Below the pieces are notes generated by a model that saw only the letters and a list, made by a program, of their open reading frames with translations, did no database searches and was not told the DNA's origin. This document shows positions 26,488 through 54,267 of a stretch of 64,000 nucleotides of DNA, in pieces. Origin of the DNA: a virus; IMG/VR virus record IMGVR_UViG_3300008262_000003, positions 62,001 to 126,000 of that record. One strand, written 5' to 3'. The number at the start of each line of letters is the position of its first letter. The first letter of the stretch is position 1. The translations under genes were made by a program, and so were the position numbers.

Positions 26488-28626
26488 TTAAAAATCAAGC
26501 TTAATTACAAATTGTTGTAATCCTGTTCTTTTTGTTGGTGATTGTAGCTTAGATATTAACATTAAATCTTTGTTAGAATCATACAATCCGATCTCGGTGA
26601 CATAAGGTGTGTATGTCGTATTCCAAGTTGGATTAGAACTCTTTTGGAATTGTTCTTGTGTTAAATTAACCTCATACTTCATTTCATATATTGTTGCGGC
26701 AATATCGGTTTTAATTGTACCGTAGAAGAAAATCTCATCACCAAATTGAATACCTTGCTGTGTTGGTGATGGGTTTGTCATATAATCCGACAAATAATAT
26801 GATGGTGCATTATTATATGATGTTTCATCAATAACAAACGTTGTTCCTGTAATACCCGCAGGTGTTAAATAAATACCATTCTTTGTAATTCCCGAAGTAA
26901 CGTCTATATATCTCCAATTTGTCGGTGTTGGTAACGCACCATTTGATGTCTTTTGGACCAACAGATACATTTGATTAGCATTAAACCCTGAACAAGATGA
27001 TGTTGGGCTTCCATTCATAAATGGGAACTCATTACCAAATCTTACAGATACGTTAGCAACATCGTTCTCGGGATCACCACTGACTTTGGAATAGATATTA
27101 CAATGTAATGAATTGGTAAAAGTTCCACCCGTAGAGTTAAATCTATACGTCACATACATCGTATCGGAACTTGATGTTAAAACACCCGTAGAACCTTGTC
27201 CTCCACCCGCACAAACGTTAGGAACTATTCTTGATACTTTGGGTACCGGTAGTGTCCAAGACCTGTTAGAAGCATAAGACATCGCAGCAATAATCTCTTG
27301 ATCATCAAATACAACCATCTTATGATCGGGAAATACCTTACCAACACGATTAGGAATACCATTACTATTTGGTTTATTATCCCACAAATCGTAATATCTA
27401 ATACCGGGATTATTCATGTCGGTATTTTTAATAGATGTTAAATATTTTACCTCGGCAAGATTAGCTGATGTAAAACCTGTAGGATCAATATAGAAAGTTT
27501 GACCGATCGTTCCACCACTATTTTTATGCCACATCAACCAAGGAATTTCAACACTAAAGTTTCTTGCTAACCCTGTTGGATCTGCATCAACATCATAAGG
27601 TTCTGTTGCAAACTTCTCACCATAAAAATTATCAATAGATTGATTAGTATAATGAACAATAGCGATTGCTCTTTGCATTTCGGGATCAACATTAATTTTT
27701 TCCGAGAATGAATTATAGTATGATGTTCCAGTATTGACTGTTTGTCCCGATGATGATTGATATCCTAAATATTCTTTTGTTCCTAAATAACCAACAGTTC
27801 CATAATTCTCATAACTATTATTAAAACCATTGATATATCCTGCAAAATTCTCACTCCAAACTATAGACATATTCCAAACCTTTGGATAATCCTGAGAAAT
27901 ATCACAAGGTGTTTCAAAATTAATAGCGTCCGTACTCCAATAATATGATGGTGTTTCTGAATCGTAGAACGGTGTAAAAGTAGATGGGTAATTTATCATT
28001 CTACTTGATGAGCAAGTGAATGCTGTATAATTTGGTAATGTTCTATCTACCACAACGTTTCCTGTACTCGCACTTTGAACACGATAAACAAACATGGGTG
28101 ATCTTCCTGTAATTGTTCCACAACCCGAATTGTTGGTGAATAAGAATAAGAATGTTCCCGCAGAAATCGTACTTGTTGTTCCACAACCATCACTAACACC
28201 ACGTAATGTTGTTCCACCACTTAATGTTGATGCGCGATATTGTGAATTAATCGTATATGAACTTGTTGTAAAAGCACTTGATCCACTGAAAAACCCTAAT
28301 GGTTCTGCAGTATTAAAAACTTGTGTTGATTGTGAAGCGTTAAACGGTATTCCATATGTCAATCCACTACTTCCCGCCAAATAGAAAGGATATTTAACAT
28401 AGTTTTTTGTGCTTTGAGGCGATCCTGTATTATTTTGGTCATTAAAGTTTGGTTGTAATACGTTACCATTCTTTTGGTTAAACCCTGTGGCACAACCATA
28501 ACACACTTCGGAATCTCCGACTTGAAAATAACTAATGTTAAAATTACCTTGTGATAATTTATTTCTACCAGCATCCGTTAAGATACTCGTAATTAAAGCT
28601 GAAGTTGATTTTATTATATACGACAT
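26488..28626 (-). CDS. Tail fibre or adhesin-like virion protein (712 aa)
   Basis: The N-terminus ALITSILTDAGRNKLSQGNF then ISYFQVGDSE resembles the tail-attachment domain of phage collar/fibre proteins (LTDAGxxxL...GD; inference). The remainder is Gly/Ser/Thr/Asn/Tyr-rich and strand-forming, typical of fibres. The C-terminus ends with a compact domain (YEMKYEVNLTQEQF, YVTEIGLYDSNKDL) that looks like a trimerisation or tip domain. It is the last gene of the 25-kb virion run. Confidence 0.75.
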   Translation of the reverse strand: MSYIIKSTSALITSILTDAGRNKLSQGNFNISYFQVGDSEVCYGCATGFNQKNGNVLQPNFNDQNNTGSPQSTKNYVKYPFYLAGSSGLTYGIPFNASQSTQVFNTAEPLGFFSGSSAFTTSSYTINSQYRASTLSGGTTLRGVSDGCGTTSTISAGTFLFLFTNNSGCGTITGRSPMFVYRVQSASTGNVVVDRTLPNYTAFTCSSSRMINYPSTFTPFYDSETPSYYWSTDAINFETPCDISQDYPKVWNMSIVWSENFAGYINGFNNSYENYGTVGYLGTKEYLGYQSSSGQTVNTGTSYYNSFSEKINVDPEMQRAIAIVHYTNQSIDNFYGEKFATEPYDVDADPTGLARNFSVEIPWLMWHKNSGGTIGQTFYIDPTGFTSANLAEVKYLTSIKNTDMNNPGIRYYDLWDNKPNSNGIPNRVGKVFPDHKMVVFDDQEIIAAMSYASNRSWTLPVPKVSRIVPNVCAGGGQGSTGVLTSSSDTMYVTYRFNSTGGTFTNSLHCNIYSKVSGDPENDVANVSVRFGNEFPFMNGSPTSSCSGFNANQMYLLVQKTSNGALPTPTNWRYIDVTSGITKNGIYLTPAGITGTTFVIDETSYNNAPSYYLSDYMTNPSPTQQGIQFGDEIFFYGTIKTDIAATIYEMKYEVNLTQEQFQKSSNPTWNTTYTPYVTEIGLYDSNKDLMLISKLQSPTKRTGLQQFVIKLDF

Positions 28627-28644
28627 ATCTATAATTATTATGAA

Positions 28645-30909
28645 TTAGTAATTTGAAATTTGAGCACCGAATGGATTAGAAATTGCAATACCCATTCCAA
28701 TTACTTTACAATCTATTATTCTTCTTTGAGTAAATCTTACATCCACATTTACATTAACATTTATGTTATTCCTACAAGTTGTAGAAATATAACCATCTCT
28801 TGTTATTGTTGCGTTATAGTTAGCATTATATTCAATAGTAACAACATCGTCCTTTTGAATATTAAATGAGGATCTTATATATGTTAAATCACCCTTAAAT
28901 TCTCTATTCGTTAAATTACAATAAGAAGGCATCGGGAAATTAGTTGTAGGATCTGTAGTAATTGTTTGTGCAACACCATTTACCTTAACCACCGGAGTTA
29001 CATTAAATGTATAAGCAAATCCTGTTTGAACGTTTTGATATGTGAATGATTTTTGAATAGTCAAACCAACCGGTATTGTCGCACCTACAGGAATCTGATC
29101 GGTACCTAAAATGGTATATTTACGATACCCACTACCTTGTTGAACAAAAGAATTACCAGGTCCAATTGGTGGGAAATTATTTTGTTGTGAATCCAACCTT
29201 GCCGTTAATTCATAGGTCGTTAATGGCTGACTACCAACAACCGCAGTTGTACTAACAACATTGTTATCATCATCCTTCAATCTAACTTGATAGGTACCAT
29301 TTGAAAGCCCTGAGAAATACGGTGATGCTTGATAAGTTAAACCACCATTTACTGAATATAAATAAGGTTGTGTTCCACCATTTCCAATCACCAAGATTGC
29401 ACCATAATGTGTTGATGGTGTAGCATAACAAGTGTCATCGGTAATATTCACACTAACCGTTGGTGTTGATGCCGTACATGTTCCCGTAACAACAACAGCA
29501 GTACTGAAAACAGGATAACCACCAACAATCCAACCACTTGTTGGAACGATAGAGGTTGATGTTGAATATATTTGTGTCGATAAATATGTGTTTTGAACCA
29601 AATCCCATCTAGTACCTGACCATCTAATATTCCACGTTCCTCCACCTGTAGACGCACTCCACGATTGTCTTCCATTTACGAAATAAGTAGAGTTAAACGT
29701 CACAGCCGAAGTAATAGCATCACTTTGTAATGTTAAACAAATGGTCGGTACCACTGCAGGTGTTGTGCTAGGTGTAATTGTTGGGGTAGGCGTAACTGTT
29801 GGTGTTGGTGTTAAACTAATGATCGTACAAGTTGTTACCGCAGTATAATCACCATAATAATCTACCGTAGTCGCAACATAATCACCCGGTAACAATCCAA
29901 CTCTATACGTTCCCGTACCACCATCGGACCAAGTTGTGGTATATGGTGCCGTTCCACCATAAATGGTTAAAGTAATTGTTCCATCGGGTGTTGTTGATGA
30001 CGATGCACTAGTACCCGAACAAGATACCGTTAAATCCACAACATTATTAACCTTACAATCTGATATGATTGAAGGTCTTAATGGTCTTGTACCCGTAGCA
30101 CTTAACGTATTAGTTGTTGATGGTGTGTTAGACGGTGTTGTATTAGGTCTTCTCGTATTAGAAGGGGTAATACTCGGTGTTGGTGTCATAGTCGGTGACG
30201 TTGTTGGTGTTGGTGTTGGTGTAGGACAAGCAATTGCGGTTACCTCACCACCACCATTATAACAAGATTGACAATTAGAATATAATCCCGATAAATAACC
30301 TTGTATTGTTCCAATAGTTCCCGAAGGATAATATTGATAACAAGAACCCGAATACCTATAAACGGGTGTTGGGTATTCTGAAAGATCCAAAACTTTAACA
30401 TTAAATGTTTTTACATCGGACGCATTACAACAATTTACAAAAGTAGTTGCTGTATAAACAACCGTTTGTGATGCAGCATACTCATTACACGCAACACAAC
30501 TATTAAATGATGTATAACTTAAAGTATCATTTGCCGAAGTATTTGTTGAAATACTATTAGCCGAGTAACATAGATTATCATCACCCGTTCCATTAAAGAA
30601 CGCAACAACACCTGTCGGAAATGTTGAAGATTCAATGAACCCTTCTCTAATTGCTGTTCCGTTACACTGAACAAACTTAACTCTAACTCTTCCCGATGAG
30701 TTACAATCCGTACAATTATTAAAATATGGTGTAGAAGGAAAAAATAATTGTGGTTGAGTGTTAGTAACATCCCAAGAACCACCATCCGTCCAACAACCAG
30801 TTCCAAGTCTTATAACCTGACCGGGAACAAACACTTGGTCATTAACCACCGCATACAGTTGGGCTGAGGGGTTACTACAAAAATTAAATAATCTATTTCT
30901 AAATGCCAT
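28645..30909 (-). CDS. Tail adhesin with SprB-like repeats and PT-rich linkers (754 aa)
   Basis: A Cys-rich N-terminal region of about 225 residues is followed by a PT-rich linker (CPTPTPTPTTSPTMTPTPS), an SprB-like unit (DGTITLTIYGGTAPYTTTWS, GDYVATTVD), a second linker near residue 370, a domain with YFVNGRQSW and W-rich strands, another SprB-like unit (DDTCYATPS, GGTQPYLYS, GTYQVRLKDDD) and a C-terminal strand-rich domain. SprB repeats are known from Flavobacterium surface adhesins. The gene is presumably a receptor-binding tail protein (inference). A TATTTAT element lies 4 nt before the ATG. Confidence 0.8.
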   Translation of the reverse strand: MAFRNRLFNFCSNPSAQLYAVVNDQVFVPGQVIRLGTGCWTDGGSWDVTNTQPQLFFPSTPYFNNCTDCNSSGRVRVKFVQCNGTAIREGFIESSTFPTGVVAFFNGTGDDNLCYSANSISTNTSANDTLSYTSFNSCVACNEYAASQTVVYTATTFVNCCNASDVKTFNVKVLDLSEYPTPVYRYSGSCYQYYPSGTIGTIQGYLSGLYSNCQSCYNGGGEVTAIACPTPTPTPTTSPTMTPTPSITPSNTRRPNTTPSNTPSTTNTLSATGTRPLRPSIISDCKVNNVVDLTVSCSGTSASSSTTPDGTITLTIYGGTAPYTTTWSDGGTGTYRVGLLPGDYVATTVDYYGDYTAVTTCTIISLTPTPTVTPTPTITPSTTPAVVPTICLTLQSDAITSAVTFNSTYFVNGRQSWSASTGGGTWNIRWSGTRWDLVQNTYLSTQIYSTSTSIVPTSGWIVGGYPVFSTAVVVTGTCTASTPTVSVNITDDTCYATPSTHYGAILVIGNGGTQPYLYSVNGGLTYQASPYFSGLSNGTYQVRLKDDDNNVVSTTAVVGSQPLTTYELTARLDSQQNNFPPIGPGNSFVQQGSGYRKYTILGTDQIPVGATIPVGLTIQKSFTYQNVQTGFAYTFNVTPVVKVNGVAQTITTDPTTNFPMPSYCNLTNREFKGDLTYIRSSFNIQKDDVVTIEYNANYNATITRDGYISTTCRNNINVNVNVDVRFTQRRIIDCKVIGMGIAISNPFGAQISNY
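29768..29814 (-). repeat. PT-linker low-complexity DNA
   Basis: Tandem ACNCCAAC-type units encode TPTPTVTPTPTITP within the 754-aa adhesin. Confidence 0.7.
30104..30226 (-). repeat. PT-linker low-complexity DNA
   Basis: Imperfect hexamer repeats (ACACCA and variants) encode the first PT-rich linker of the 754-aa adhesin. The same units recur at 31655-31775, 33007-33108 and 33388-33616, giving several stretches for recombination. Confidence 0.7.
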
Positions 30910-30913
30910 ACTA

Positions 30914-30920
30914 ATAAATA
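30914..30920 (-). promoter_or_regulatory. TATTTAT element abutting an adhesin start
   Basis: The minus strand reads TTATTTATTAGTATGG: the element ends 4 nt before the ATG at 30909, in the same context as at 7846-7852. Confidence 0.45.
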
Positions 30921-30940
30921 ATCATTAAGTCGTTTTTTTT

Positions 30941-31984
30941 TTATGGACATGAAGGATCTCCACAACCACCACCAATAAGAGTTATTGTCTCACCACCAAT
31001 GTCAATAGCCTGATTTGCGGAAGTTAAAGTGTCATCAAATTGGTAACATTCCGGACCTAATACTGTAATTTGAATAACATCACCATTATTATATGATGAT
31101 AGATCTTGATTATAAATTAATCTAGTTTCTGCAGGATTGTTACATTGTTTCACAATTCTTGGTTGATATGGTGTTGATGCTGTAAACCAAATATTAGTCG
31201 TTCCGGGATATGTGGTGTTGTAAGGATATTCAATCGACGTTCCTTGATCCAATTGATAATAATCATTCTTATTTGTAGATATACTATTACCCGTCCAAAC
31301 CCATTCATTACTGTTTGAGGTAACACCACTCGCAGTTATACCATACAATGAAATTAAAGTTCCGCCATAATTCTTTAATTGATGTATGTGAACACCCGAA
31401 CCCGTTTCAACATCATATTGTTCATTAGGCGAATAAATAGTTCTGATTTTAAATTCATTTGCCTCAACTGCAGTGATTATTAATTTATTTTGTGCTGGAG
31501 GACCTTGATTTTGAGTATCATATAAATTATCAGTTCTAACATTTTCTCCTTGAACTAAATAAAGATTTGAAAATGAAGCATTGATTATTGATCCATTATA
31601 AAATTGACCCTCACCTATTTCATTAGAATCAAACTTCAGAATATTAATCTGTTGTGTTGGATTAGTAGGTGATGGTGTCATTGTATTTGTTGGTGTCATT
31701 GTATTTGTTGGTGTATTCGTAGGTGTTTGAGATGGTGAAGCGGTGATTGACGCTGTTGGTGTTTGAGATGGTGGAATTTCATTTTGTATTCCAACACTCC
31801 CAAGAGAATCCACTATTTTAACACCAAGCAATGATAATGTATCATATGGTGCGGGAACATTTATTGTAAAATTATTAGTGGTCGTTGATGTTGAATAATA
31901 AACAAACGACCCGTAAGCATCTCCTACGTAAATGTCAATCGGTGGAACCGCTGTTATTGAAGTAACTGATATTGTTGTTGCCAT
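30941..31984 (-). CDS. PT-linker tail protein (347 aa)
   Basis: Residues 1-70 form a small beta domain (YVGDAYGSFVYYS), followed by an SQTPT/TNTMTP linker of about 45 residues (repeats TPTNTMTPTNTMTP) and a C-terminal domain of about 230 residues with strands and a final Cys-containing GGGCGDPSCP. It lies 7 nt after the 1054-aa gene and shares linker composition with both neighbours, so it is probably part of the same receptor-binding apparatus. Confidence 0.75.
   Translation of the reverse strand: MATTISVTSITAVPPIDIYVGDAYGSFVYYSTSTTTNNFTINVPAPYDTLSLLGVKIVDSLGSVGIQNEIPPSQTPTASITASPSQTPTNTPTNTMTPTNTMTPSPTNPTQQINILKFDSNEIGEGQFYNGSIINASFSNLYLVQGENVRTDNLYDTQNQGPPAQNKLIITAVEANEFKIRTIYSPNEQYDVETGSGVHIHQLKNYGGTLISLYGITASGVTSNSNEWVWTGNSISTNKNDYYQLDQGTSIEYPYNTTYPGTTNIWFTASTPYQPRIVKQCNNPAETRLIYNQDLSSYNNGDVIQITVLGPECYQFDDTLTSANQAIDIGGETITLIGGGCGDPSCP
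31655..31775 (-). repeat. PT-linker low-complexity DNA
   Basis: Direct repeats of a 21-nt unit encoding TPTNTM plus related hexamers form the linker of the 347-aa protein. Confidence 0.65.
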
Positions 31985-31991
31985 ATTTTTT

Positions 31992-34900
31992 TTATGTTAC
32001 AGTATAAGTAAAGAATTGTTGAGTGGGTGATGTAATTATTTTAGTTCCTGAAATAGTCGCACATTGACCACTCCAACTAACAAACGTATTATTATTACTA
32101 GGTACACCCGCACCAGTTGTGAAATATGCTGCTAAGATGTTTGAACTAACCGTTAGAGTTTGAGAACATCCTCCCGGTAAATTAGGTACCGACAATACTG
32201 TACCCGAATATGTCAATTGAAGTGTTATGGTATCGCCGTTTTGGAATGTGAAGGGTAAAAATCCTCCCGCACTAACAGATGTTGGTGCCAAGTTTGAAAG
32301 TCTCCAACCTGAACCACTCAGATAATTACCGGTACTAGCTCTTCTAACTTGATTAAATATTGTTGATCCACTATCTGTACAGGTACCTCCTGATGGATTC
32401 ACACCTGAAGCTGTCGCCAAGGTTCTTGTTGTCGCCGTAACCAAACTTCCGTTCTTAATAATATTCGCCGTAACCTGCCATGGTTGTGTTGTCATACCTG
32501 AGAAGAAACCTGTTTGAGTGTTAAAACTCATACCCCACTGATCGTTAAATGATCCATTCCAAGTTGCTCCCGTAGGTACGTTAGTTAAACCACTCAATAC
32601 TGCAGTTCCCGAATACACTACCGTAATCGCACTTCCCGGATATGTCGTACCTGTAATATCAACGGAGTATGCTGTTGCCGCTGACGATACAAATATCGGT
32701 GTTCTACTCCAAACAAATGATGTAATCGCACTAAATGTATTCGCCGAACTTGGTCTTGTAATAGTTACCGGTGTTACGGATGTTTGAGCATTAGTAATAT
32801 TATCTCTAACAACAATTCCATATGTACTACTTGATAAACCCGAGAATAATGTGCTAGACGAGAATGTAACACCACTATTGATTGAGTATATATAGTTAGA
32901 ACCCGTCGCACCTGATCCTGTAACATTAATAATTCCGAAGAACCTATTCGCAGTTATTGCACTATTTGTATAACTTTCACAAGTATCATTTGATGATGCC
33001 AAACTTAAAATACCGATTGCCGGTAAAGTAGGTGTTGGTGTTTGTGTTGGTGTTGCAGTATTTGTCGGTGTTACCGTTGGTGTAGGAGTAGGTGTTGATG
33101 GTGTTAAACAATCAACACAAGATGAGAATGACGCAATAGCACCTCCATAAACAACATTTGATGAGTTGTCAGTATAATCTGTTAAAGTAACACAAGTAGA
33201 TATACCATCAATATAAGCACTAAAAATACTACCTCTTGTAATTGTCGTACCCGTTATAGAAATATTTTCAGAAACAATGTATTCATCACCCGTCGAACAA
33301 TCAGTAAGAACTTTATTTCCACCGGGACAAATAAATGGTGAATTTACAATTTCATATATTGAAGTACCACTTGAAGAAACCGATCTTGTTGGAATAGGTG
33401 TATTTGTTGGTGTTTGTGTTGGTGTAGGACTCGGACTTGTTCTTGTTACAGATATTGTAAATGTAACCGCAGCGGGTGAAGTCGTAGAAGGTGTTGGTGT
33501 AAATGTTGGTGTCGTAGTAGGTGTCGCTGTTGGTGTTGCAGTATTCGTCGTCGTTATTGACGGAGTTGGTGTTGTAGTTGGAGTTGGTGTCGGTGTTTTG
33601 GTTGGTGTTGGAGTTGGACAACTACTAACATCAAAAACACTATCACATATGTCGGGACAATCTGTCGAACATGGTTGCTTACCACTTAAAATACAAGAAC
33701 CACCTAAAGATGTTGATAAACACCATTTATTACCATCATAAAACACTGTAGCGGCAGATATTGTCCCACCACTATAAATATTTTTACCATTGTAATATGT
33801 TATGCTTTTTGTATAATTCCCACTATACGCCGATAATGACGGAAATGAAGTATTGAAACAAAAATTATCATCGGTACAACCTGTAACAACTGGTGGTAAA
33901 TTCGCAAAAAGCGGAATGTTTGGTAATCCATAATTAAAATTAACACCACCACCCGTACTAGCATTAAAATTAGAAATAGTTACTGCCGATAATCGGTCAT
34001 TAGGATTATCAATATAATATAACTCAGTGGTACCTCTATTTGTGAAATATATTTTTTCATCAACCGCTAAGTGTAAAGTACCTAAACTATTACCACCCGT
34101 TTGAACAAATGTTGCATAATTTGTTGATGCAGTAACGGTTGTCGCACTTACAGGTGGTGTTGTATTAAGATTAAATTGTAGTATCTTCCCACCCGCAGAC
34201 GTTTGAAATTCGGAAACATATAAATAATTACCATCGGGTGAGAATTCACATCCTAAAACATCACCAACATCAAAAACCTCGGGATTAGCACCATTGATAT
34301 CATATATCGTATAACCCGTATTTCCCAATAAAACTTTTTCATTAGTTAAAGCACCGGTTGATCTATCAAAATCAAAAATACTTACAGCAGGTCTGTAAGC
34401 CGTGTATGATGGTACCGCCAAAGAATCACCAAGAACCATCGCAACTTTACTATAATCGGGTGATGGTTTTATTTGACCATAATTATTATACCCCTGTAAA
34501 ACTTGAGCGGTGGTTGAGGTATATGGTGTTCCCGAAATACCTATATTATTAATTAGAAATGAATGTATTTGATTTCTACCCCAATTAGGTGTTATTACCC
34601 ATAGATCTTGACCATTTTGATGTAAGGCAGTTGTTAATACCTCAGCATAACCATATCCGTTATTAGAACCTAACGGATAATTAGCTTCACCCCCCGTTGT
34701 TGATCTATTACCTAATTCAACATTTGTATTTATAACTTGGAAAAATGGTGATGTTCCACCAGTATATTTGAGTGTATTATACGTTAATGCTTGACTTGAG
34801 TTACCATAACCATTTTCAGTGAACGCCGCACCCACACCAACTGTTAGAACATAATACGTATCCGAACTATATGGTGATTGTAAAATAGTTGCCGATTGCA

Positions 34901-35156
34901 TCGAAAAAGCACTTCCCGATAAACCTGTTGCAATGTCCGTTCCTCCCGATGTTTTGATTGTAACACCATCAGAAACAAGTAATAATTTACCATTATCGTC
35001 AGAAAAACTGGTCCCACTCTCACCATTAGTTGCAAAAAAATCAATGGAACTTGTTACAATTTCGGGTGACCCACCACTAAATGTAATCCATATATTATTA
35101 CCAGTCGTTTCGTGTGACGCAATCCAGTTCCAACCTTGTTTTGTATTTAATGCCAT
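31992..35156 (-). CDS. Large tail adhesin: beta-propeller-like head, PT linkers, SprB-like unit (1054 aa)
   Basis: Residues 1-420 look like a beta-propeller, with blade-like segments (YSKVAMVLGDS, GCEFSPDGNYLYVSEF, LHLAVDEKIYFTN). Next come a Cys-containing module (NGKNIYSGG, YDGNKWCLS), a long linker (CPTPTPTKTPTPTPTTTPTP), a domain with EYIVSENIS and CVTLTDY, a second linker, an SprB-like unit (DTCESYTNSA, GSNYIYSINSG, SSSTYGIVVRDN) and a C-terminal strand-rich domain. Propeller plus SprB-type repeats is an arrangement of Bacteroidota surface proteins. In the phage it is probably a long tail fibre. Confidence 0.8.
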   Translation of the reverse strand: MALNTKQGWNWIASHETTGNNIWITFSGGSPEIVTSSIDFFATNGESGTSFSDDNGKLLLVSDGVTIKTSGGTDIATGLSGSAFSMQSATILQSPYSSDTYYVLTVGVGAAFTENGYGNSSQALTYNTLKYTGGTSPFFQVINTNVELGNRSTTGGEANYPLGSNNGYGYAEVLTTALHQNGQDLWVITPNWGRNQIHSFLINNIGISGTPYTSTTAQVLQGYNNYGQIKPSPDYSKVAMVLGDSLAVPSYTAYRPAVSIFDFDRSTGALTNEKVLLGNTGYTIYDINGANPEVFDVGDVLGCEFSPDGNYLYVSEFQTSAGGKILQFNLNTTPPVSATTVTASTNYATFVQTGGNSLGTLHLAVDEKIYFTNRGTTELYYIDNPNDRLSAVTISNFNASTGGGVNFNYGLPNIPLFANLPPVVTGCTDDNFCFNTSFPSLSAYSGNYTKSITYYNGKNIYSGGTISAATVFYDGNKWCLSTSLGGSCILSGKQPCSTDCPDICDSVFDVSSCPTPTPTKTPTPTPTTTPTPSITTTNTATPTATPTTTPTFTPTPSTTSPAAVTFTISVTRTSPSPTPTQTPTNTPIPTRSVSSSGTSIYEIVNSPFICPGGNKVLTDCSTGDEYIVSENISITGTTITRGSIFSAYIDGISTCVTLTDYTDNSSNVVYGGAIASFSSCVDCLTPSTPTPTPTVTPTNTATPTQTPTPTLPAIGILSLASSNDTCESYTNSAITANRFFGIINVTGSGATGSNYIYSINSGVTFSSSTLFSGLSSSTYGIVVRDNITNAQTSVTPVTITRPSSANTFSAITSFVWSRTPIFVSSAATAYSVDITGTTYPGSAITVVYSGTAVLSGLTNVPTGATWNGSFNDQWGMSFNTQTGFFSGMTTQPWQVTANIIKNGSLVTATTRTLATASGVNPSGGTCTDSGSTIFNQVRRASTGNYLSGSGWRLSNLAPTSVSAGGFLPFTFQNGDTITLQLTYSGTVLSVPNLPGGCSQTLTVSSNILAAYFTTGAGVPSNNNTFVSWSGQCATISGTKIITSPTQQFFTYTVT
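33007..33108 (-). repeat. PT-linker low-complexity DNA
   Basis: Hexameric ACACCA-like units encode the second PT linker (STPTPTPTVTPTNTATPTQT) of the 1054-aa adhesin. Confidence 0.7.
33388..33616 (-). repeat. Longest PT-linker low-complexity DNA
   Basis: About 230 bp of imperfect ACACCA/ACNCCN units encode the main linker of the 1054-aa adhesin, interrupted near its middle by a short Ser/Val-rich segment. Confidence 0.75.
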
Positions 35157-35157
35157 G

Positions 35158-37299
35158 TTATGTTAAACAATTTATATCGAAATCAATTATTAAATTGATA
35201 ACTAAATCTTTATTAAAATAAGTATCAACACCCGAAGAACTTGTAACAACTATTTGTCCTGTATTTTGATCAACATTAACCGAAGCAATATCAGGAAAAC
35301 CATCTAACAGATTTGAAACAGTATCATACCATAGAGTATCCGAAGGAACTTGTGAAAGTGTATATCCCGTATAAAACGTAGAACTTGATGATGTTGTACC
35401 TGCACTTATTTCCGCAGTAAATACCGATGAATTAAATACACAATAAGTATTTCCCGATGTTAAAGCACTATACGCTTCATACACCATACTTAACATATCT
35501 CTTTTTTGTCCAACCTGTACTATCATGTCGGAATCACACACACTATATGTTTGGAATGACGCTCTTAAAACACTACAAGAAACATCAGTAGATCTTGTTA
35601 AGGTACATCCATTAGAACCCGAAACTGTTAAGGTGTATGTCCCTGCAGTTAATCCTGTGGCAACTAATCCACCCGTAGTTGTTCCCGAAACATTTGATGA
35701 CCATGTATATGTAAATGGTGGTAACCCTTGCGTAATTAACGCAGTAACCGTTCCACCACTTCCGGTGTCACCACAAGTTTGAGAATATAATGTAAAATTC
35801 AATCCCGAATCACTACCAATTGTAAATCCCGATGAAATAGTACAACCTGTACTATCAGTAACAGAAATAGTATAATTACCCGACACTAAATTACTAAAGG
35901 TTGTTGATGATAATGAGGTTCCCAATAAACTTTGTCCGTTACTTAAAACATAATTAAATGGTGCCAAACCTCCCGATGTTTTTTCAACATAAACTTGTCC
36001 AACACCACTATTACACGTATCACCCGTTGCACTAACATTTATACCGAATGAAACATTATTACTAATTGTTGTTGTTCCCGTATAACCACAAGAACTATTA
36101 TCGTTAAAAATTATTGTATATGTTCCCGATGTTAAATCTTCAAAAGTATATTGTGTGGAATTAGTAACTTGTGATAAAATAGTGATCCCACTTAATTTTA
36201 ATGTATATGTGTAAGCAGGACTTCCTCCATCCACACTAACCTTTATTGACCCATCACTAGCACCACAGTTAGAGTTAGTTGGAACAATACTTACAGAACT
36301 AATTGACCCAGGTGAAACCAATGTGGTTGATAATGTGGCAACACATAATCCCGCATCTGTGATATTAACACTAAAGGTTCCGGGACTCAAAGCCGAAAAT
36401 GATAAACTTGTCGCAGTAGTGGATGATATTGTTCCATTACTAGCCGAAAATTGATATGGTGCAGATCCTCCCGATATTGTCAATGTTGCCTGACCATTAG
36501 ATTGTAAGCAAGTTGGTTGGATTATTGAACTAAACACACCACCAACAACACTTACGGTTCCTACGGTAGCGTCCTGTGTTAATGAACACCCACTACCATC
36601 CGTAACGGTTACAGAATAAGTTCCCGCTGATAATCCTGTTCTTGTGGATCCCGTAGATCCATTATCTTCCCAAAGATAAGTGAAGGGTTCCGTACCTGTC
36701 TCACCAGTTATAGAAATCGTTCCTGTTGATGTAATACATTGAGAACTATCCGTTATTACAAATCCGTAAGAAATACTCGGACTATCTTCTATGATACACG
36801 TTTCTGTGGTTGCAGTACAACCCGCACTCCAACCCGACACATAATAAATCCCTGTCCCTAAATTAGTAAATGTGTATGTTGAATTATCCGTTGTTTTGGA
36901 ATCAAAAACCGCACTCCCTTTATATAAAACAAAATCAACATCCGAGATATTTGTTGTTGCTGTAACCGTTAATATACCATTCGCTTCACCACATGTAGAA
37001 GCACTAACCGTACTAAACGATAAACAAAGTCCCGAAGATATATTAACATTAATATCTAAGAATTGATTTGTGGGACTTTGAGCATCCGTGGCTCTAACAT
37101 AATATGTTCCTGCCGATAAACCCGTTCTTAATGAAGAATTTAACGGTGAAAATGGAACGGTATATTGACTATCGTAATACCAATTAAACGTAAATGGTGG
37201 AACCCCCGAACCGGGAACCACATTTATTTTTGCCGCACCGAAATTAGTATTACTACAATCACCCGTTACGCTTAAATAATAATTAAAATTTGCACTCAT
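35158..37299 (-). CDS. Tail adhesin made of seven SprB-like repeats (713 aa)
   Basis: I count seven consecutive units of 75-85 residues, each with a Cys near the start, a GT(I/L)xhxhxGG(x)xPF/PY core and a GTYxVxhxDxxGC end (for example GTEPFTYLWEDNG with AGTYSVTVTDGSGC). This is the SprB repeat pattern of gliding-motility adhesins. The C-terminal 120 residues are a different domain ending IIDFDINCLT. The stop shares bases with the ATG of this gene's upstream neighbour (TAATG). Probable repeat-stalk fibre for receptor binding. Confidence 0.85.
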   Translation of the reverse strand: MSANFNYYLSVTGDCSNTNFGAAKINVVPGSGVPPFTFNWYYDSQYTVPFSPLNSSLRTGLSAGTYYVRATDAQSPTNQFLDINVNISSGLCLSFSTVSASTCGEANGILTVTATTNISDVDFVLYKGSAVFDSKTTDNSTYTFTNLGTGIYYVSGWSAGCTATTETCIIEDSPSISYGFVITDSSQCITSTGTISITGETGTEPFTYLWEDNGSTGSTRTGLSAGTYSVTVTDGSGCSLTQDATVGTVSVVGGVFSSIIQPTCLQSNGQATLTISGGSAPYQFSASNGTISSTTATSLSFSALSPGTFSVNITDAGLCVATLSTTLVSPGSISSVSIVPTNSNCGASDGSIKVSVDGGSPAYTYTLKLSGITILSQVTNSTQYTFEDLTSGTYTIIFNDNSSCGYTGTTTISNNVSFGINVSATGDTCNSGVGQVYVEKTSGGLAPFNYVLSNGQSLLGTSLSSTTFSNLVSGNYTISVTDSTGCTISSGFTIGSDSGLNFTLYSQTCGDTGSGGTVTALITQGLPPFTYTWSSNVSGTTTGGLVATGLTAGTYTLTVSGSNGCTLTRSTDVSCSVLRASFQTYSVCDSDMIVQVGQKRDMLSMVYEAYSALTSGNTYCVFNSSVFTAEISAGTTSSSSTFYTGYTLSQVPSDTLWYDTVSNLLDGFPDIASVNVDQNTGQIVVTSSSGVDTYFNKDLVINLIIDFDINCLT

Positions 37300-40238
37300 T
37301 AGTTACAGAAAATACTGAAGTCAATACCAACATTAACTTTTAAGTTTATGGTTTCATCTTCACATGTTAATCTCCTAATTGTTAGAGTTGTACCTTCAGT
37401 AGAGAAAGTATAATAATAACCATCATCAATTAAAGTATTAAGAGTGTTTGTTAGTGCATTTTTCCAATCTGTGTTAGTTGGAGCATCACTTATACCCGTT
37501 GTTGTATAAAATTTATCATTAGCAATTGTTGTTCCATTTTCTTGGATATTAACATACCAACCAACAGAAACCGTTGTTGTAATACAATCTGTTAAAGTTT
37601 TACCCAATGTTGCAACATAATTGTTTAATGTTTCATATAATATCGCCGAAAACGCTTCAGTTGGATATGTGTTACATGTTGATGTCTTAGTAATACAATC
37701 ATACCCAAATAATGTTCCAATCGCACGACATCCCGCTTTAGTTACAGGAACCAATTGACAACCTCTTTGTCTTCTATATACAAACTTTTGTCTGTGAAAG
37801 ATTGAGTTTTCAAATTTAGTACCTGTATTCCACAAGGTAGATGCCGGTATAAATTGTTCTACCATTCGTATCCAATAAGAACCAATACCATCAACATAAT
37901 CAGATAAACTTTGATATGTAAAATTATCATTAGATACTCCAACATTTTCAGATTGTAACCAATTCCAAAAAACTTGTGATAATGTAGGATATGCGTTGGT
38001 ATTACCCCCCGTGATCCATTGTCTATTTCTAGTATTAATCATGGTACGCCAAAAAGATTGAGCGAACTCAAAAAATGTTTTTGTTTGTGGTTGTGGATTT
38101 ACAAAAGTCCAATCCATATTACCCGGTGTCGGATATGGTGAGCTCAATCCCGATGATGGTATAGGATAATTAAACTTGTTTGACATTTTCCAAACATCAT
38201 AAACTATACCCTGTGATGGGTTCATAAATAAATCAACGTTCTTAACATTAATTGCTAATTTATCATTAGATATATTATAATAAGCATTATACCCACCTTG
38301 ATCACCAACCCTTAATCCAAGATCATCAACACTCCAACTTTTCCTATTATCAGTTACTTTTCTCAACGTAAAACCTAAATGCATATTAGGGAATGTTCTA
38401 TATTGATTCAAATAATCTTGACCATATGTAAATGGCGATAATGATGTTTGAATGTTAGGGTTTGTCCCACTAAACACCGATAAAGTATTATTAACAACTT
38501 CAGGACTTCTATGTGATGGTGTAGATTCAAACCACCCACTTCCTTTTTGGAAGAAAAATGTTGATCCCGTAGCATTAAAATATGGATAACCTTCGTTATC
38601 TATCGGATAATCATTCCTACTTTCGGTTGCAAAACTAAGTGATGTTGTAGATGTAAATGCAGAATATGTTGTACCCTTAATTGTATATGTATTACCCTCA
38701 ATAAATTGAGGAAAATCTTGTTCAAAAAATCCTGTTTCAATTTCAGCATATTGTGTGTCAAATTGTGACATATTGATTTTTTGATCCGCCAAGTAAATAT
38801 TCTCGTTAAATTCAACTAGAAAATCAGGTGCCCCTACTAACTTCATAATCCCTTCAATAGCCTTTCTTGTTCCTTTTGATTTGAAAAGATATGCCGCATT
38901 TAATATTAAATTCCTGTAGAATTGAAAATTTAATTCGGTTGGTGTTAAGTTTCTACTATACCCACTATATTGTATAGCTCCATTAGTATTAAACACACTA
39001 CTTAGAAAATCAGAACTCGAAATTGGTGAAACATTTATATTATATCCAAGTGTTTGTGCTAAGTTTTTTAATAGTGCGGAAGGTATGTCGTTACCTGGAT
39101 TGTATGAAACGTTATTCATATATGCCAAAGCATCAATGAATTTTTTAACTTCATCAAAACCTCTACCATAAATTTGTAAAACCTTCTCAACTTTTTGTTC
39201 TGAAGTATCAAACTCTTTTAATGATTCGGTAACAAAGAATCTTGAAATCAAATTTGTTTTTTGACTATCAAAACTTTCAGCAATTTCTGATATTGCAAGA
39301 ACATAGTCGTCAAAAACACTAGTTCTAATATCTAAGTTCCACGATCCGTCCAACGGCCAAGTAACATTTTGTCCTTGAACATACAGAACCCCGTCATCGG
39401 ATTCTCTCGGAACGTTAAATGTTGCAGTATATGGTGGATTTGATAATCTATTTAACAAGAATCTCTCAACCTCATCAAACGCCTCCGAAAATGTCATTTC
39501 GGTATAATAGGAGCTCAATCTTATTTTCAAAGAATCCGTAGTCGTTGTGCTTGTAAATGCTTGTCCGCTAACGACAATCTGTAAGGTCCCCGCAGAAATA
39601 CTTGTAGTAGGAACAATATAGGTTATGGGATATTCATATCCATTAGCATATAATGAATATTTTCTATAATTGTTTGTAAAATCCCTTAAAGGTGATGTTG
39701 GTGTTTCTTTAGCCGCAAGATTGTTTAATGAATTTGTTGTAAAATCAATATCAAAAGGGTTTTTTATAATACTAGCATCAATACTCATTGTCGTTTCAAC
39801 GTCCTGAGAATCATACGACATATCAAATGCTGTCGTTCCTGTTGATAAATCATATCTTGTTTGATCAATATCCATAGATGCGGGAAAATAACCTAAAATC
39901 TTAGTTATTGAAACCGCCAACCTTTTAGTTAATGACCCATATATTGTGAAGTTAGTAACCTCGGACAAATCAAAATTTGGATAAACTCTAAATTCTTTCG
40001 CCAACAACATTCTTGACTCTTCCGTATTTTGAACAGATAAAGTTTCAAGTGATATAGGTTCTGAAAACGTTCCAATATTAAACGTCCTACTACTTTTTTG
40101 TTTTACCGATGTTGTAAAAGTAAAATTACCCGAAGTTAAACCACCCCCATCTACCAATTGCACACCAACCAGATTATCAAAAGTGTTATCCGCTCCTGAT
40201 CCTGTTTGTGGTGGTGTTATTATTTTATTAACTGCCAT
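37299..40238 (-). CDS. Baseplate/tail protein with tail-protein-I-like domain (979 aa)
   Basis: Residues about 345-480 contain helices VEKVLQIYGRGFDEVKKFID, SALLKNLAQTLGYNIN and YLFKSKGTRKAIEGIMKLVG, the pattern of P2 gpI-type baseplate proteins that join fibres to the wedge (family knowledge). The first 340 residues are strand-rich and the C-terminal 400 hold aromatic-rich domains (WSVDDLGLRVGDQ, FWRTMINTRNRQW). Its end, INLKVNVGIDFSIFC, resembles the end of the neighbouring 713-aa adhesin. It probably anchors the adhesins on the baseplate. Confidence 0.8.
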   Translation of the reverse strand: MAVNKIITPPQTGSGADNTFDNLVGVQLVDGGGLTSGNFTFTTSVKQKSSRTFNIGTFSEPISLETLSVQNTEESRMLLAKEFRVYPNFDLSEVTNFTIYGSLTKRLAVSITKILGYFPASMDIDQTRYDLSTGTTAFDMSYDSQDVETTMSIDASIIKNPFDIDFTTNSLNNLAAKETPTSPLRDFTNNYRKYSLYANGYEYPITYIVPTTSISAGTLQIVVSGQAFTSTTTTDSLKIRLSSYYTEMTFSEAFDEVERFLLNRLSNPPYTATFNVPRESDDGVLYVQGQNVTWPLDGSWNLDIRTSVFDDYVLAISEIAESFDSQKTNLISRFFVTESLKEFDTSEQKVEKVLQIYGRGFDEVKKFIDALAYMNNVSYNPGNDIPSALLKNLAQTLGYNINVSPISSSDFLSSVFNTNGAIQYSGYSRNLTPTELNFQFYRNLILNAAYLFKSKGTRKAIEGIMKLVGAPDFLVEFNENIYLADQKINMSQFDTQYAEIETGFFEQDFPQFIEGNTYTIKGTTYSAFTSTTSLSFATESRNDYPIDNEGYPYFNATGSTFFFQKGSGWFESTPSHRSPEVVNNTLSVFSGTNPNIQTSLSPFTYGQDYLNQYRTFPNMHLGFTLRKVTDNRKSWSVDDLGLRVGDQGGYNAYYNISNDKLAINVKNVDLFMNPSQGIVYDVWKMSNKFNYPIPSSGLSSPYPTPGNMDWTFVNPQPQTKTFFEFAQSFWRTMINTRNRQWITGGNTNAYPTLSQVFWNWLQSENVGVSNDNFTYQSLSDYVDGIGSYWIRMVEQFIPASTLWNTGTKFENSIFHRQKFVYRRQRGCQLVPVTKAGCRAIGTLFGYDCITKTSTCNTYPTEAFSAILYETLNNYVATLGKTLTDCITTTVSVGWYVNIQENGTTIANDKFYTTTGISDAPTNTDWKNALTNTLNTLIDDGYYYTFSTEGTTLTIRRLTCEDETINLKVNVGIDFSIFCN

Positions 40239-52407: not shown

Positions 52408-54267
52408 TTATTTAATCTCACAAGCACCACCAGCACAAGCTAACTCACCACTCAAATCAGTATTATCTTGGGTTTCAACAACCTTTGATAAATCAATAGA
52501 GTGAAGTTTTTCAAACATCTCATAATACCTTTCTTCAGTAATATCTTCAAAAGGTGCCTGAATGTAACTGCCCCCATCGTAAGGTAAAACCGATAATCCA
52601 TTATAGAAGTTTCTATTATTCCACATCCATTCACCCGCCAATTCCCATTCATCTTCTTTCAAAGAAATGGTTGCTGATACGTTATGTGAATTAGAACCTG
52701 TTCTGTGACCTGGTTTAATCCATTCTTGTGATACACGTTTTACACGATCCAAGATTTGGAATGGACTTTCAGTTCTCAAAATAGCACCTTCAGGTGATTT
52801 TTGTGGAACGGAAATAACCGCAGTGTCGTGAGGACGGAAATACTCATCTTCCACTAACTCGGGGTGATTCTCTACCAAGTAAGAATAAATTGGTTCATTC
52901 TTACCCACACGAACACGACGAACATAATAATCGTTGTGCCAAGCGTGAATACCCGATGAAGTTCCAAGAGTTAATGATGTAGTTCCCGCAGGTTTTACTG
53001 TTGTAGATCTCGCCGCAGGATTGATACCAATGATTTTCGCAACTCGCTCATTCTCTTCATTAGCCATAGTAGCCGCTTGTGTCATATCATAACCTAACAC
53101 AGTTCCTGATCCAATACCCGTCATTGATACACCGATCAACGCATCTTTTTCAGTTGTTTTCTTCCAAATATCTCGTAGATAGTGAAAATCAGTATAACCC
53201 GCTTGTAATGTTCCAATGAACGCCGCCGCTTTTACTCGGGTGTTGAAGTCTTCTTGTGATTCAATATCTGATACATTTACCTCACATAAGTTACAAAACT
53301 GATATGGTCTCAAAGCGATCTCACAACACGGGTTGGTTCCCCAATCTTTATCGTTTGTAAAGTAGATACCGGGTTCTCCCGCACCTGACAACTCAACTCG
53401 TTTCCAAAGTTCCATAAAGAATTCTTTGGTGATTTTGTGACGAAGAAGAACTGCCGAGTTATTTGCTCTACCACGTTGTGGATTGTTTTCCCACCAAGAA
53501 CCTGATTTACAAGCAATCATCTCATCATCATCAGCACTAAACAAGGAAATCAAAGCTGCCCTACGAATCCCACCTGCTAGTACCGCATCCGCAATATGAC
53601 AAACAATATCATGAACCTCAATCGGACTTAATCTATCACCATCTTCTTTTGAATCTAATACCTTTGTGATATTATGAACACAATCTTTTAATGGTTGGGG
53701 ACCCGGTGCTTTACCACCCGATGTTACCAATGCAGCACCTTTTGGTCGGATATCTGAAAAATCAAAATCAGGTGTTGATGTGTTTTGACCAAAATATGAC
53801 TTCATCAATACTTTAATCGCATCCGCCCATCCTTCAATACTATCACCAACCAAGTATCTTCTTTTTCTTGTTGCCGATGGTTTTCTAATTTCAGGTAATT
53901 TATCTACGTGATGTTTCTGAACAGAATAACCAACACCTGTACCACCTAACAATAAGAACATACACTCAGCAAAACTATCCAAGTGGTCTATCGGTAAGTA
54001 AGAACAGTTATAAATTCTGTTTGGTGATATTTCAATTGGTCTTCCCCCAAATTGAAGTGATCTCATTGAAGGTAACACTTTTTTGTTGTAAACCAACTTA
54101 TATACTTCTCTAATCTCTGATTCTAAGGATGGATATTTCTTAATGTGCATATCCATATTTCTTGTAACCAGTTCGTCCCATGTTTCTCTTCTATTTAACT
54201 CGGGAACATATTTGGCGTATTTCATATACACCGTTAAATCTGACAAAATCTTCTGTGAAGCGTCCAT
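52408..54267 (-). CDS. nrdJ: Class II (B12-dependent) ribonucleoside-triphosphate reductase (619 aa)
   Basis: The product has the NrdJ/RTPR layout: RIYNCSYLP with Cys88, the substrate loop with NPCCEIALRPYQFCNLCEVN (near residues 312-331) carrying the thiyl-radical and partner Cys, and the C-terminal redox tail with Cys611 and Cys616. It converts ribonucleotides to deoxyribonucleotides using adenosylcobalamin, without oxygen or a separate radical subunit. It is a single-chain enzyme and 100-150 residues shorter than the lactobacillus RTPR. It lies 11 nt after the helicase gene. Host cobalamin supply is needed. Confidence 0.95.
   Translation of the reverse strand: MDASQKILSDLTVYMKYAKYVPELNRRETWDELVTRNMDMHIKKYPSLESEIREVYKLVYNKKVLPSMRSLQFGGRPIEISPNRIYNCSYLPIDHLDSFAECMFLLLGGTGVGYSVQKHHVDKLPEIRKPSATRKRRYLVGDSIEGWADAIKVLMKSYFGQNTSTPDFDFSDIRPKGAALVTSGGKAPGPQPLKDCVHNITKVLDSKEDGDRLSPIEVHDIVCHIADAVLAGGIRRAALISLFSADDDEMIACKSGSWWENNPQRGRANNSAVLLRHKITKEFFMELWKRVELSGAGEPGIYFTNDKDWGTNPCCEIALRPYQFCNLCEVNVSDIESQEDFNTRVKAAAFIGTLQAGYTDFHYLRDIWKKTTEKDALIGVSMTGIGSGTVLGYDMTQAATMANEENERVAKIIGINPAARSTTVKPAGTTSLTLGTSSGIHAWHNDYYVRRVRVGKNEPIYSYLVENHPELVEDEYFRPHDTAVISVPQKSPEGAILRTESPFQILDRVKRVSQEWIKPGHRTGSNSHNVSATISLKEDEWELAGEWMWNNRNFYNGLSVLPYDGGSYIQAPFEDITEERYYEMFEKLHSIDLSKVVETQDNTDLSGELACAGGACEIK

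What the first reader, a model, noticed from the sequence alone, without database searches (positions are those of the whole stretch)
28645..37299. Tail adhesin locus built from SprB-like repeats, PT linkers and a propeller
Four adjacent virion-block genes encode SprB-like repeat units (seven in tandem in the 713-aa protein, two in the 754-aa, one in the 1054-aa), Thr-Pro-rich linkers and a beta-propeller-like head. SprB repeats and such linkers are known from Bacteroidota surface adhesins used in gliding and attachment. A phage that carries several may mimic host adhesins to bind host polysaccharide or glide-machinery partners, or may have taken them from the host. Sequence shows the repeats; the function is inferred.
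Basis: partly seen in the sequence, partly recalled or inferred. Interest (0 to 1): 0.8.

Follow-up and report, generated by a model that had tools for sequence, protein, structure and literature searches.

The report
Phage tail shaft with swappable heads
An uncultured phage, probably of Bacteroidota, encodes next to its baseplate genes a long-established chain of seven adhesin-type (SprB-like) units, and neighbouring proteins whose differing heads hang on proline-threonine linkers, one head being a propeller otherwise seen mainly in secreted proteins of Bacteroidota.

Summary
A unit profile finds seven SprB-like units in the 713-aa product, two in the 754-aa and one in the 1054-aa; Thr-Pro linkers lie in the 754-, 1054- and 347-aa products; the 1054-aa product begins with a beta-propeller. 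The propeller's bacterial relatives found here come almost wholly from Bacteroidota and mostly bear type 9 secretion sorting domains; the genes lack Shine-Dalgarno-like sites, as in a Flavobacterium phage. But the 713-aa protein is no recent loan: it directly follows the 979-aa gene in 75 of 80 related viral loci (the other five end there), has exactly seven units in 61 of 61 complete homologues, and co-varies with the 979-aa protein (r 0.95). Its C-terminal domain is homologous to that protein's C-terminus. After these domains, and after a 70-aa anchor shared with the 347-aa protein, other phages carry unrelated extensions, often starting with a Thr-Pro linker (31 of 48 distinct tails; background 6%). 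Best reading: a conserved tail shaft and sockets with exchangeable receptor-binding heads, a new variant of a known kind (compare BACON repeats in crAss-like phages). Virion location, receptor and any link with gliding are untested.

The parts
35158..37299 (-). 713-aa shaft protein: seven Ig-like SprB-type units plus C-terminal cap domain
   Evidence: Pfam SprB 52.7 bits; seven unit hits; AlphaFold2 mean pLDDT 80.9; homologue in 75 of 80 related loci
35575..37287 (-). seven tandem SprB-like units (aa 5-575)
   Evidence: unit profile hits at aa 5-87, 93-170, 176-248, 255-329, 336-414, 418-496, 501-575
35161..35565 (-). C-terminal cap domain of the 713-aa protein (aa 579-713)
   Evidence: profile-profile match to the C-terminus of the 979-aa protein, probability 97.9, E 4.2e-13; pieces from elsewhere at most 0.6
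37299..40238 (-). 979-aa baseplate-type protein directly upstream, overlapping by one base
   Evidence: position; weak Tail_P2_I match under the cut-off, E 0.027, the only one in the record at E 1 or better; co-varies with the 713-aa core, Mantel r 0.95
37302..37718 (-). C-terminal cap domain of the 979-aa protein (aa 841-979)
   Evidence: same order helix-strand-strand-helix-three strands in both models
31992..35156 (-). 1054-aa protein: propeller, conserved core, Thr-Pro linkers, one SprB-like unit
33891..35156 (-). beta-propeller (aa 1-422)
   Evidence: PDB profile search; relatives in Bacteroidota genomes
33375..33635 (-). Thr-Pro linker stretch (aa 508-594)
   Evidence: linker scan
33018..33125 (-). 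Thr-Pro linker (aa 678-713)
   Evidence: linker scan
32766..32939 (-). single SprB-like unit of the 1054-aa protein (aa 740-797)
   Evidence: 14.8 bits, best shuffle 9.0
30941..31984 (-). 347-aa protein: 70-aa anchor, Thr-Pro linker, unrelated head
   Evidence: anchor found in 72 free-standing and 21 longer proteins, this one included
31775..31984 (-). anchor domain (aa 1-70)
31649..31777 (-). Thr-Pro linker (aa 70-112)
   Evidence: linker scan
28645..30909 (-). 754-aa protein: N-terminal part, linker, SprB-like unit, linker, middle part, SprB-like unit, C-terminal part
29815..30033 (-). SprB-like unit A of the 754-aa protein (aa 293-365)
   Evidence: 24.1 bits, best shuffle 9.1
29230..29451 (-). 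SprB-like unit B of the 754-aa protein (aa 487-560)
   Evidence: 32.9 bits, best shuffle 9.1
26488..28626 (-). 712-aa neighbour, weakly like a minor tail protein; probably the same block
   Evidence: PHROG 2683, E 6.8e-4; relatives in 4 other loci

Best explanation
The locus encodes the adsorption apparatus at the tail tip of a contractile-tailed phage, probably of a Bacteroidota host. The 713-aa protein is a conserved shaft of seven Ig-like units of the SprB/GhpA kind, closed by a cap domain that it shares with the adjacent 979-aa baseplate-type protein. Cap domains and a small 70-aa anchor act as sockets. In different phages, unrelated receptor-binding heads are joined to them, often through Thr-Pro linkers, or stand in neighbouring genes. 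In this phage the heads sit on the 1054-aa (propeller), 347-aa and 754-aa proteins. The shaft holds heads away from the tail and flexible linkers let several of them search the host surface; exchange of heads changes the target. Shown here: the units, the shared cap, the conservation, the linker-joined tails, the propeller's kin. Inferred: presence in the virion, position at the tail tip, receptor binding, host.
For: Position: gp25- and gp6-like wedge genes upstream in the same run of genes. Conservation: first gene behind the 979-aa homologue in 75 of 80 loci, the other 5 cut by contig ends; exactly seven units before the cap in 61 of 61 complete homologues, 43 distinct sequences, window copies left out; Mantel r 0.95, best of 2000 permutations 0.41, 34 loci; same-position units on average 35-47% alike between phages, different units within a protein 28%. 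Cap homology, same secondary-structure order. Sockets: distinct tails over 40 aa with a Thr-Pro linker starting within 45 aa: 13 of 24 (713-aa cap), 9 of 9 (979-aa cap), 9 of 15 (anchor), background 434 of 7041 positions. The proteins of this region in other phages hold varied domains: collagen, Fib_succ_major, LRR, YadA head, S74 chaperone (112 proteins scanned). Host: SD-like sites before 2 of 44 window ORFs against 0 of 23 (Flavobacterium phage), 9 of 29 (Microcystis phage), 20 of 31 (T4).
Against: PHROG calls the 713-aa family 'Hoc-like head decoration', and its best PDB sequence match is a phage 'neck whiskers' protein (9occ, E 2.3e-6), so head or neck is possible. The 979-aa protein has no firm family match and a poor model (pLDDT 57.6). 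pTM 0.33 means that the shaft's overall shape is not predicted. 11 of 24 distinct 713-aa tails and 6 of 15 anchor tails have no linker at the junction, and 'distinct' tails include near relatives, so they are not independent events. 63 of the 74 complete 979-aa homologues, and the list, have no tail over 40 aa or share one of the nine, so that socket is used in few lineages. A test whether module borders fall at linkers gave 125 of 374 against 94 expected, but linkers were masked, which biases it. No host is known, and the record is a metagenomic contig.
Confidence: 0.62

Rival explanations
1. The 713-aa protein is a capsid decoration (Hoc-like) or a neck or collar whisker with Ig-like units that loosely binds surfaces or other fibres; the neighbouring proteins are the true tail fibres.
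For: PHROG 'Hoc-like head decoration' E 2.5e-14; 14 of 34 homologues match one such family; PDB profile hits to 'neck whiskers protein gp24' E 2.3e-6 and a 'Decoration protein' E 1.6e-4; in T4 the whisker gene wac also follows the baseplate genes.
Against: Cap domain shared with the 979-aa protein, adjacency with one-base overlap and co-variation tie it to that protein, though that protein's own place is inferred too; Ig-like units are common and say little about place.
Confidence: 0.2
2. The locus is a set of adhesins recently taken from a Bacteroidota host and used to mimic gliding adhesins.
For: SprB family match; propeller family otherwise in Bacteroidota type 9 secreted proteins; fold match to GhpA.
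Against: Shaft is an old core gene of the clade; propeller forms a long branch apart from the bacterial ones; no type 9 sorting domain over the cut-off in the proteins of the locus.
Confidence: 0.08
3. The products are not virion parts but are released on lysis or displayed on the infected cell, for example to block superinfection.
For: Units and propeller resemble secreted surface proteins.
Against: No sorting domain over the cut-off; the 713-aa homologue directly follows the 979-aa gene in 75 of 75 loci that reach that far.
Confidence: 0.05

Closest known systems
[quoted passage not shown]
   Same: Tandem array of a domain known from Bacteroidota proteins, associated with tail proteins, proposed role in host binding
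   Different: Other domain family and a phage with contractile-tail-type baseplate genes; here seven units in 61 of 61 complete homologues, a shared cap domain follows, and heads hang on Thr-Pro linkers
GhpA, grappling-hook protein of Aureispira (PDB 9flp and others)
   Same: First three fold matches of the 713-aa model, 16-18% identity; weak sequence-profile match E 4.4e-4
   Different: A bacterial protein of 5898 residues; its Z-score (10.9, rmsd 66 over 524 residues) is tied with fibronectin type III and Ig chains, so the fold is common
A0A6J5LD72, 'SprB repeat' protein of an uncultured Caudovirales phage
   Same: 714 aa, 35% identity over 722 alignment columns, E 1.9e-58: a deposited member of the same family
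   Different: Seen only as a database name; no description was found in the papers searched (listings)
Hoc-like decoration proteins and neck whiskers
   Same: Ig-like units in a virion protein
   Different: None with a cap domain shared with a baseplate-type protein is known to me (recall, not searched)

Membership tests
SprB repeat (Pfam PF13573) | match over the curated cut-off of 28 bits, 713-aa protein | tested here: met
   52.7 bits
SprB repeat (Pfam PF13573) | match over the curated cut-off, 754-aa protein | tested here: not met
   27.5 bits; no family listed by hmmscan
SprB repeat (Pfam PF13573) | match over the curated cut-off, 1054-aa protein | tested here: not met
   no match at E 0.001 or E 1
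Bacteroidota gliding adhesin (SprB protein) | C-terminal type 9 secretion sorting domain | tested here: not met
   NCBIfam: the only type 9 model is Por_Secre_tail at 10.4 bits, cut-off 23, at aa 208-237 of the 713-aa protein; none in the other five proteins scanned
Bacteroidota gliding adhesin (SprB protein) | movement along the cell by the gliding machinery | not testable with these tools
   needs microscopy
Bacteroidota type 9 secreted propeller proteins | N-terminal propeller of this family | tested here: met
   27-36% identity to 51 bacterial rows of A6; loci
Bacteroidota type 9 secreted propeller proteins | type 9 sorting domain | tested here: not met
   present in 43 (type B) and 23 (type A) of 69 bacterial C-termini (overlap not counted), no such model in the 1054-aa protein
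P2 gpI-like baseplate proteins (979-aa protein) | Pfam Tail_P2_I over cut-off | tested here: not met
   11.3 bits, cut-off 20.6
Hoc-like head decoration | binding to the capsid | not testable with these tools
   PHROG match only

The most novel reading that the evidence does not exclude
The clade carries a standardised plug-in tail tip: two proteins with one homologous cap domain plus a 70-aa anchor serve as fixed sockets, Thr-Pro linkers as couplings, and heads are drawn from the surface proteome of Bacteroidota and elsewhere, so that the virion works like a small grappling hook built from adhesin parts of its hosts' phylum. In its boldest form, the SprB-type shaft engages the same ligands or tracks as gliding adhesins; nothing here shows that.
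Probability: 0.4. Interest if true: 0.75.

Novelty: new variant of a known kind. Interest (0 to 1): 0.55.

Why it matters
How uncultured Bacteroidota phages recognise their hosts is poorly known (my knowledge, not searched). A fixed shaft and sockets with recognisable junctions would let receptor-binding heads be read off genomes and tested one by one, and would show phages and Bacteroidota building adhesive devices from the same Ig-like unit.

Tried and rejected
A reverse transcriptase (diversity-generating retroelement) was sought in the record and not found (PF00078, 0 of 1 at E 0.001). Homologues of the 979-aa and 713-aa families in the fetched 42-kb regions of the Flavobacterium phage immuto and the Microcystis phage Mel-JY01, and in that of LR756508: none, although their gp6-like proteins match at 26-27%. 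tblastn against 50,697 phage records: no match for the 979-aa (E 1e-5), 1054-, 754- and 712-aa proteins (E 1e-3); the 713-aa protein matched one record, LR756502. Fold search with the 979-aa model: nothing at E 0.001 or better. Module borders and linkers: set aside as biased by masking. A Bacteroidota promoter pattern (recalled) gave 11 matches against 5.3 expected, 3 of 100 shuffles as many: weak, not used. Recent tandem duplication of the units: rejected, since units differ more within a protein than same-position units do between phages. One search counted 25 fused anchors, but that counted matches and a duplicate of the window's own gene; recounted by protein it is 21.

Paper searches for neck whiskers gp24 and for Ig-like tails of freshwater Bacteroidetes phages returned nothing; one search gave no paper on the hook's structure in its listing; led to PMC6949934 (abstract); one search listed 4 papers, of which passages of PMC7345892 were read: its authors think that phage receptors of F. 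columnare are likely part of the gliding machinery, citing F. johnsoniae work that is not held. Passages of PMC13288928 were read. The four papers naming immuto were seen as a listing only.

Rows dropped: near-identical copies L009-L012 of the window phage were left out of the counts, but are among the 75 of 80 and the 65 and 78; ORFs cut by locus ends were left out of tail and unit counts; 10 of 79 bacterial proteins that run off their locus were left out; the Pfam scans took 95 of 133 non-redundant neighbours (59 in A3, 36 in A4) plus 17 shaft homologues in A4, so the 20 SprB members of A4 include shaft homologues. The unit comparison used 15 of 34 sequences. The A2 rows were chosen to cover the whole core, so A2 alone cannot show that unit number is constant; one search tests that on all complete homologues with a cap.

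Full report
What is there. The window is bases 62001-126000 of a 165,529-base virus record. On the - strand, behind genes for gp25-like and gp6-like baseplate wedge proteins, run products of 1612, 567, 272, 360, 301 and 979 aa and then the four of the finding: 713, 1054, 347 and 754 aa, followed by one of 712 aa. The 979- and 713-aa genes overlap by one base.

Units, linkers, propeller. Pfam names SprB repeats in the 713-aa protein at 52.7 bits. A profile built from the seven units of 34 sequences gives seven, two and one units in the 713-, 754- and 1054-aa proteins, against about 9 bits for the best of 300 shuffles; the 713-aa protein helped to train the profile, the other two did not. Thr-Pro linkers are in the 754-, 347- and 1054-aa proteins, none in the 713-aa. 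The first 435 aa of the 1054-aa protein, with relatives, have propellers as best PDB profile matches.

The shaft is an old core gene. A search with the 979-aa protein brought 80 loci of IMG/VR, the best of 156 confirmed. The next gene is a 713-aa homologue in 75 of 80; in the other five the contig ends there. Four near-identical copies of the window phage (L009-L012) are among the 75. Of 61 complete homologues with a cap, those copies left out, 61 have exactly seven units before the cap and none after it (43 distinct sequences); in 37 of the 61 the first unit starts only some 60 residues in, so they have an N-terminal addition that is not such a unit. The 33 aligned relatives are 29-40% identical to the window's protein, and distances follow those of the 979-aa protein (Mantel r 0.95 over 34 loci, best of 2000 permutations 0.41). 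Same-position units are on average 35-47% identical between phages, different units within one protein 28%, shuffled 23% (15 of 34 sequences sampled). So the seven units are old and individually kept. SprB passes the cut-off in the records of all 15 clade loci tested (one of them a near-copy of the window phage), in the contig of L104 and in LR756502; it was not found in immuto, Mel-JY01, LR756508 and the contig of L105.

Sockets and heads. The C-terminal domains of the 713- and 979-aa proteins are homologous (probability 97.9, E 4.2e-13; other pieces at most 0.6, apart from a piece overlapping the 979-aa C-terminus itself, 95.6), and both models show helix, two strands, helix, three strands. 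In the window phage both proteins end there. In other phages unrelated tails follow: of distinct tails over 40 aa, a Thr-Pro linker starts within 45 aa in 13 of 24 for the 713-aa cap and 9 of 9 for the 979-aa cap. The first 70 aa of the 347-aa protein recur: 72 free-standing and 21 longer proteins (54 and 15 distinct sequences, the 347-aa protein included), always N-terminal in the longer ones (21 of 21); 9 of 15 distinct tails start with a linker. Background is 434 of 7041 positions. The counts include related tails and are not independent events. The 1054-aa core (aa 424-507 and 596-677) recurs in 30 and 23 loci, in proteins mostly of about 535 aa where complete, with some 70 residues ahead of it where this phage has the propeller. 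Pfam over 112 proteins of this region in related phages (95 neighbours, 17 shaft homologues) finds collagen, Fib_succ_major, LRR, DUF285, YadA head and S74 chaperone domains among others. These facts suggest fixed sockets and exchangeable heads.

Link to Bacteroidota. Of the 79 genome loci with a related propeller (best 80 of 110 confirmed; two conserved patterns used; several loci come from one genome), 76 bear titles of Bacteroidota, Chlorobiota or Kapabacteria and three belong to one unnamed MAG. Of 69 complete bacterial C-termini, 43 match the type B and 23 the type A sorting domain of type 9 secretion. The phage proteins have none over the cut-off. In a quick tree the window's propeller and L104 form a long branch (2.36 changes per column, midpoint root) apart from the bacterial ones, whereas L105, from another viral contig, falls among them: the window's propeller is not a recent loan from a sampled bacterium. 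SD-like sites precede 2 of 44 window ORFs and 30 of 679 ORFs of related loci, against 20 of 31 in T4, 9 of 29 in the Microcystis phage and 0 of 23 in the Flavobacterium phage. A Bacteroidota host is likely, not shown.

Fold. The 713-aa model has mean pLDDT 80.9 and pTM 0.33. Foldseek ranks three parts of the Aureispira grappling hook first (E 1.9e-21 to 1.9e-18). VIA-align ties GhpA with fibronectin type III chains (Z about 11), so only the Ig-like class is safe. In BFVD the best match is a 714-aa 'SprB repeat' protein of an uncultured phage: the family is in databases by name.

Mechanism, with its certainty. Shown: units, linkers, propeller, shared cap, conservation, extensions. Inferred: the 713-aa protein is a shaft at the tail tip; cap domains and anchor hold heads; linkers give reach; heads bind the cell surface. 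The main rival is a neck or head fibre. Gliding partners remain a guess, although SprB and RemA are discussed as possible phage receptors in Bacteroidota (PMC13288928, passages).

Known or new. Tail-linked tandem repeats of a Bacteroidota domain are known for BACON in crAss-like phages (PMC6949934, abstract). A full-text search for 'SprB repeat' with 'phage' returned one paper, on toxins (listing only); of 40 papers with SprB, phage and tail the 30 listed showed no such study by title. The search library lacks most subscription journals. I rate it a new variant of a known kind.

Noticed in passing
L186 3420-5531 (G004 188420-190531): A clade contig (that of L027) carries near its end a 703-aa protein with a type 9 sorting domain over the Pfam cut-off (48.7 bits) and a leader-like start, beside three short proteins that look like outer-membrane barrels (by eye). 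Either phage-encoded surface proteins of the host type or a chimeric contig end.
   Followed up: partly
L099 10897-15909 (LR756502): A 642-kb uncultured phage encodes a protein of about 1670 aa with 14 SprB matches.
   Followed up: no
L074 12990-16082: The 713-aa homologue of this phage seems to end in a Fib_succ_major-type head after a Thr-Pro linker (by eye); one of 53 A4 members has that Pfam domain, which one was not shown.
   Followed up: partly
A3 and A4 proteins: Glycosyltransferase domains (PF11397, 5 of 112 proteins) and a sulfotransferase (1) lie among the tail genes of related phages, perhaps modifying virion parts.
   Followed up: no
L104 6001-9204: The other phage propeller (76% identity) lies some 22 kb from that contig's best SprB hits, in a 705-aa frame that may be the shaft gene, so the propeller gene is not fixed in place.
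   Followed up: partly
first genes behind the 979-aa homologue, e.g. L035 12949-15252: 37 of 61 complete shaft homologues have about 60 residues before the first unit that are not such a unit; their nature was not studied.
   Followed up: no
window 52408-54267: A ribonucleotide reductase gene with a B12-type (class II) insertion-domain match stands between tail and replication genes.
   Followed up: no
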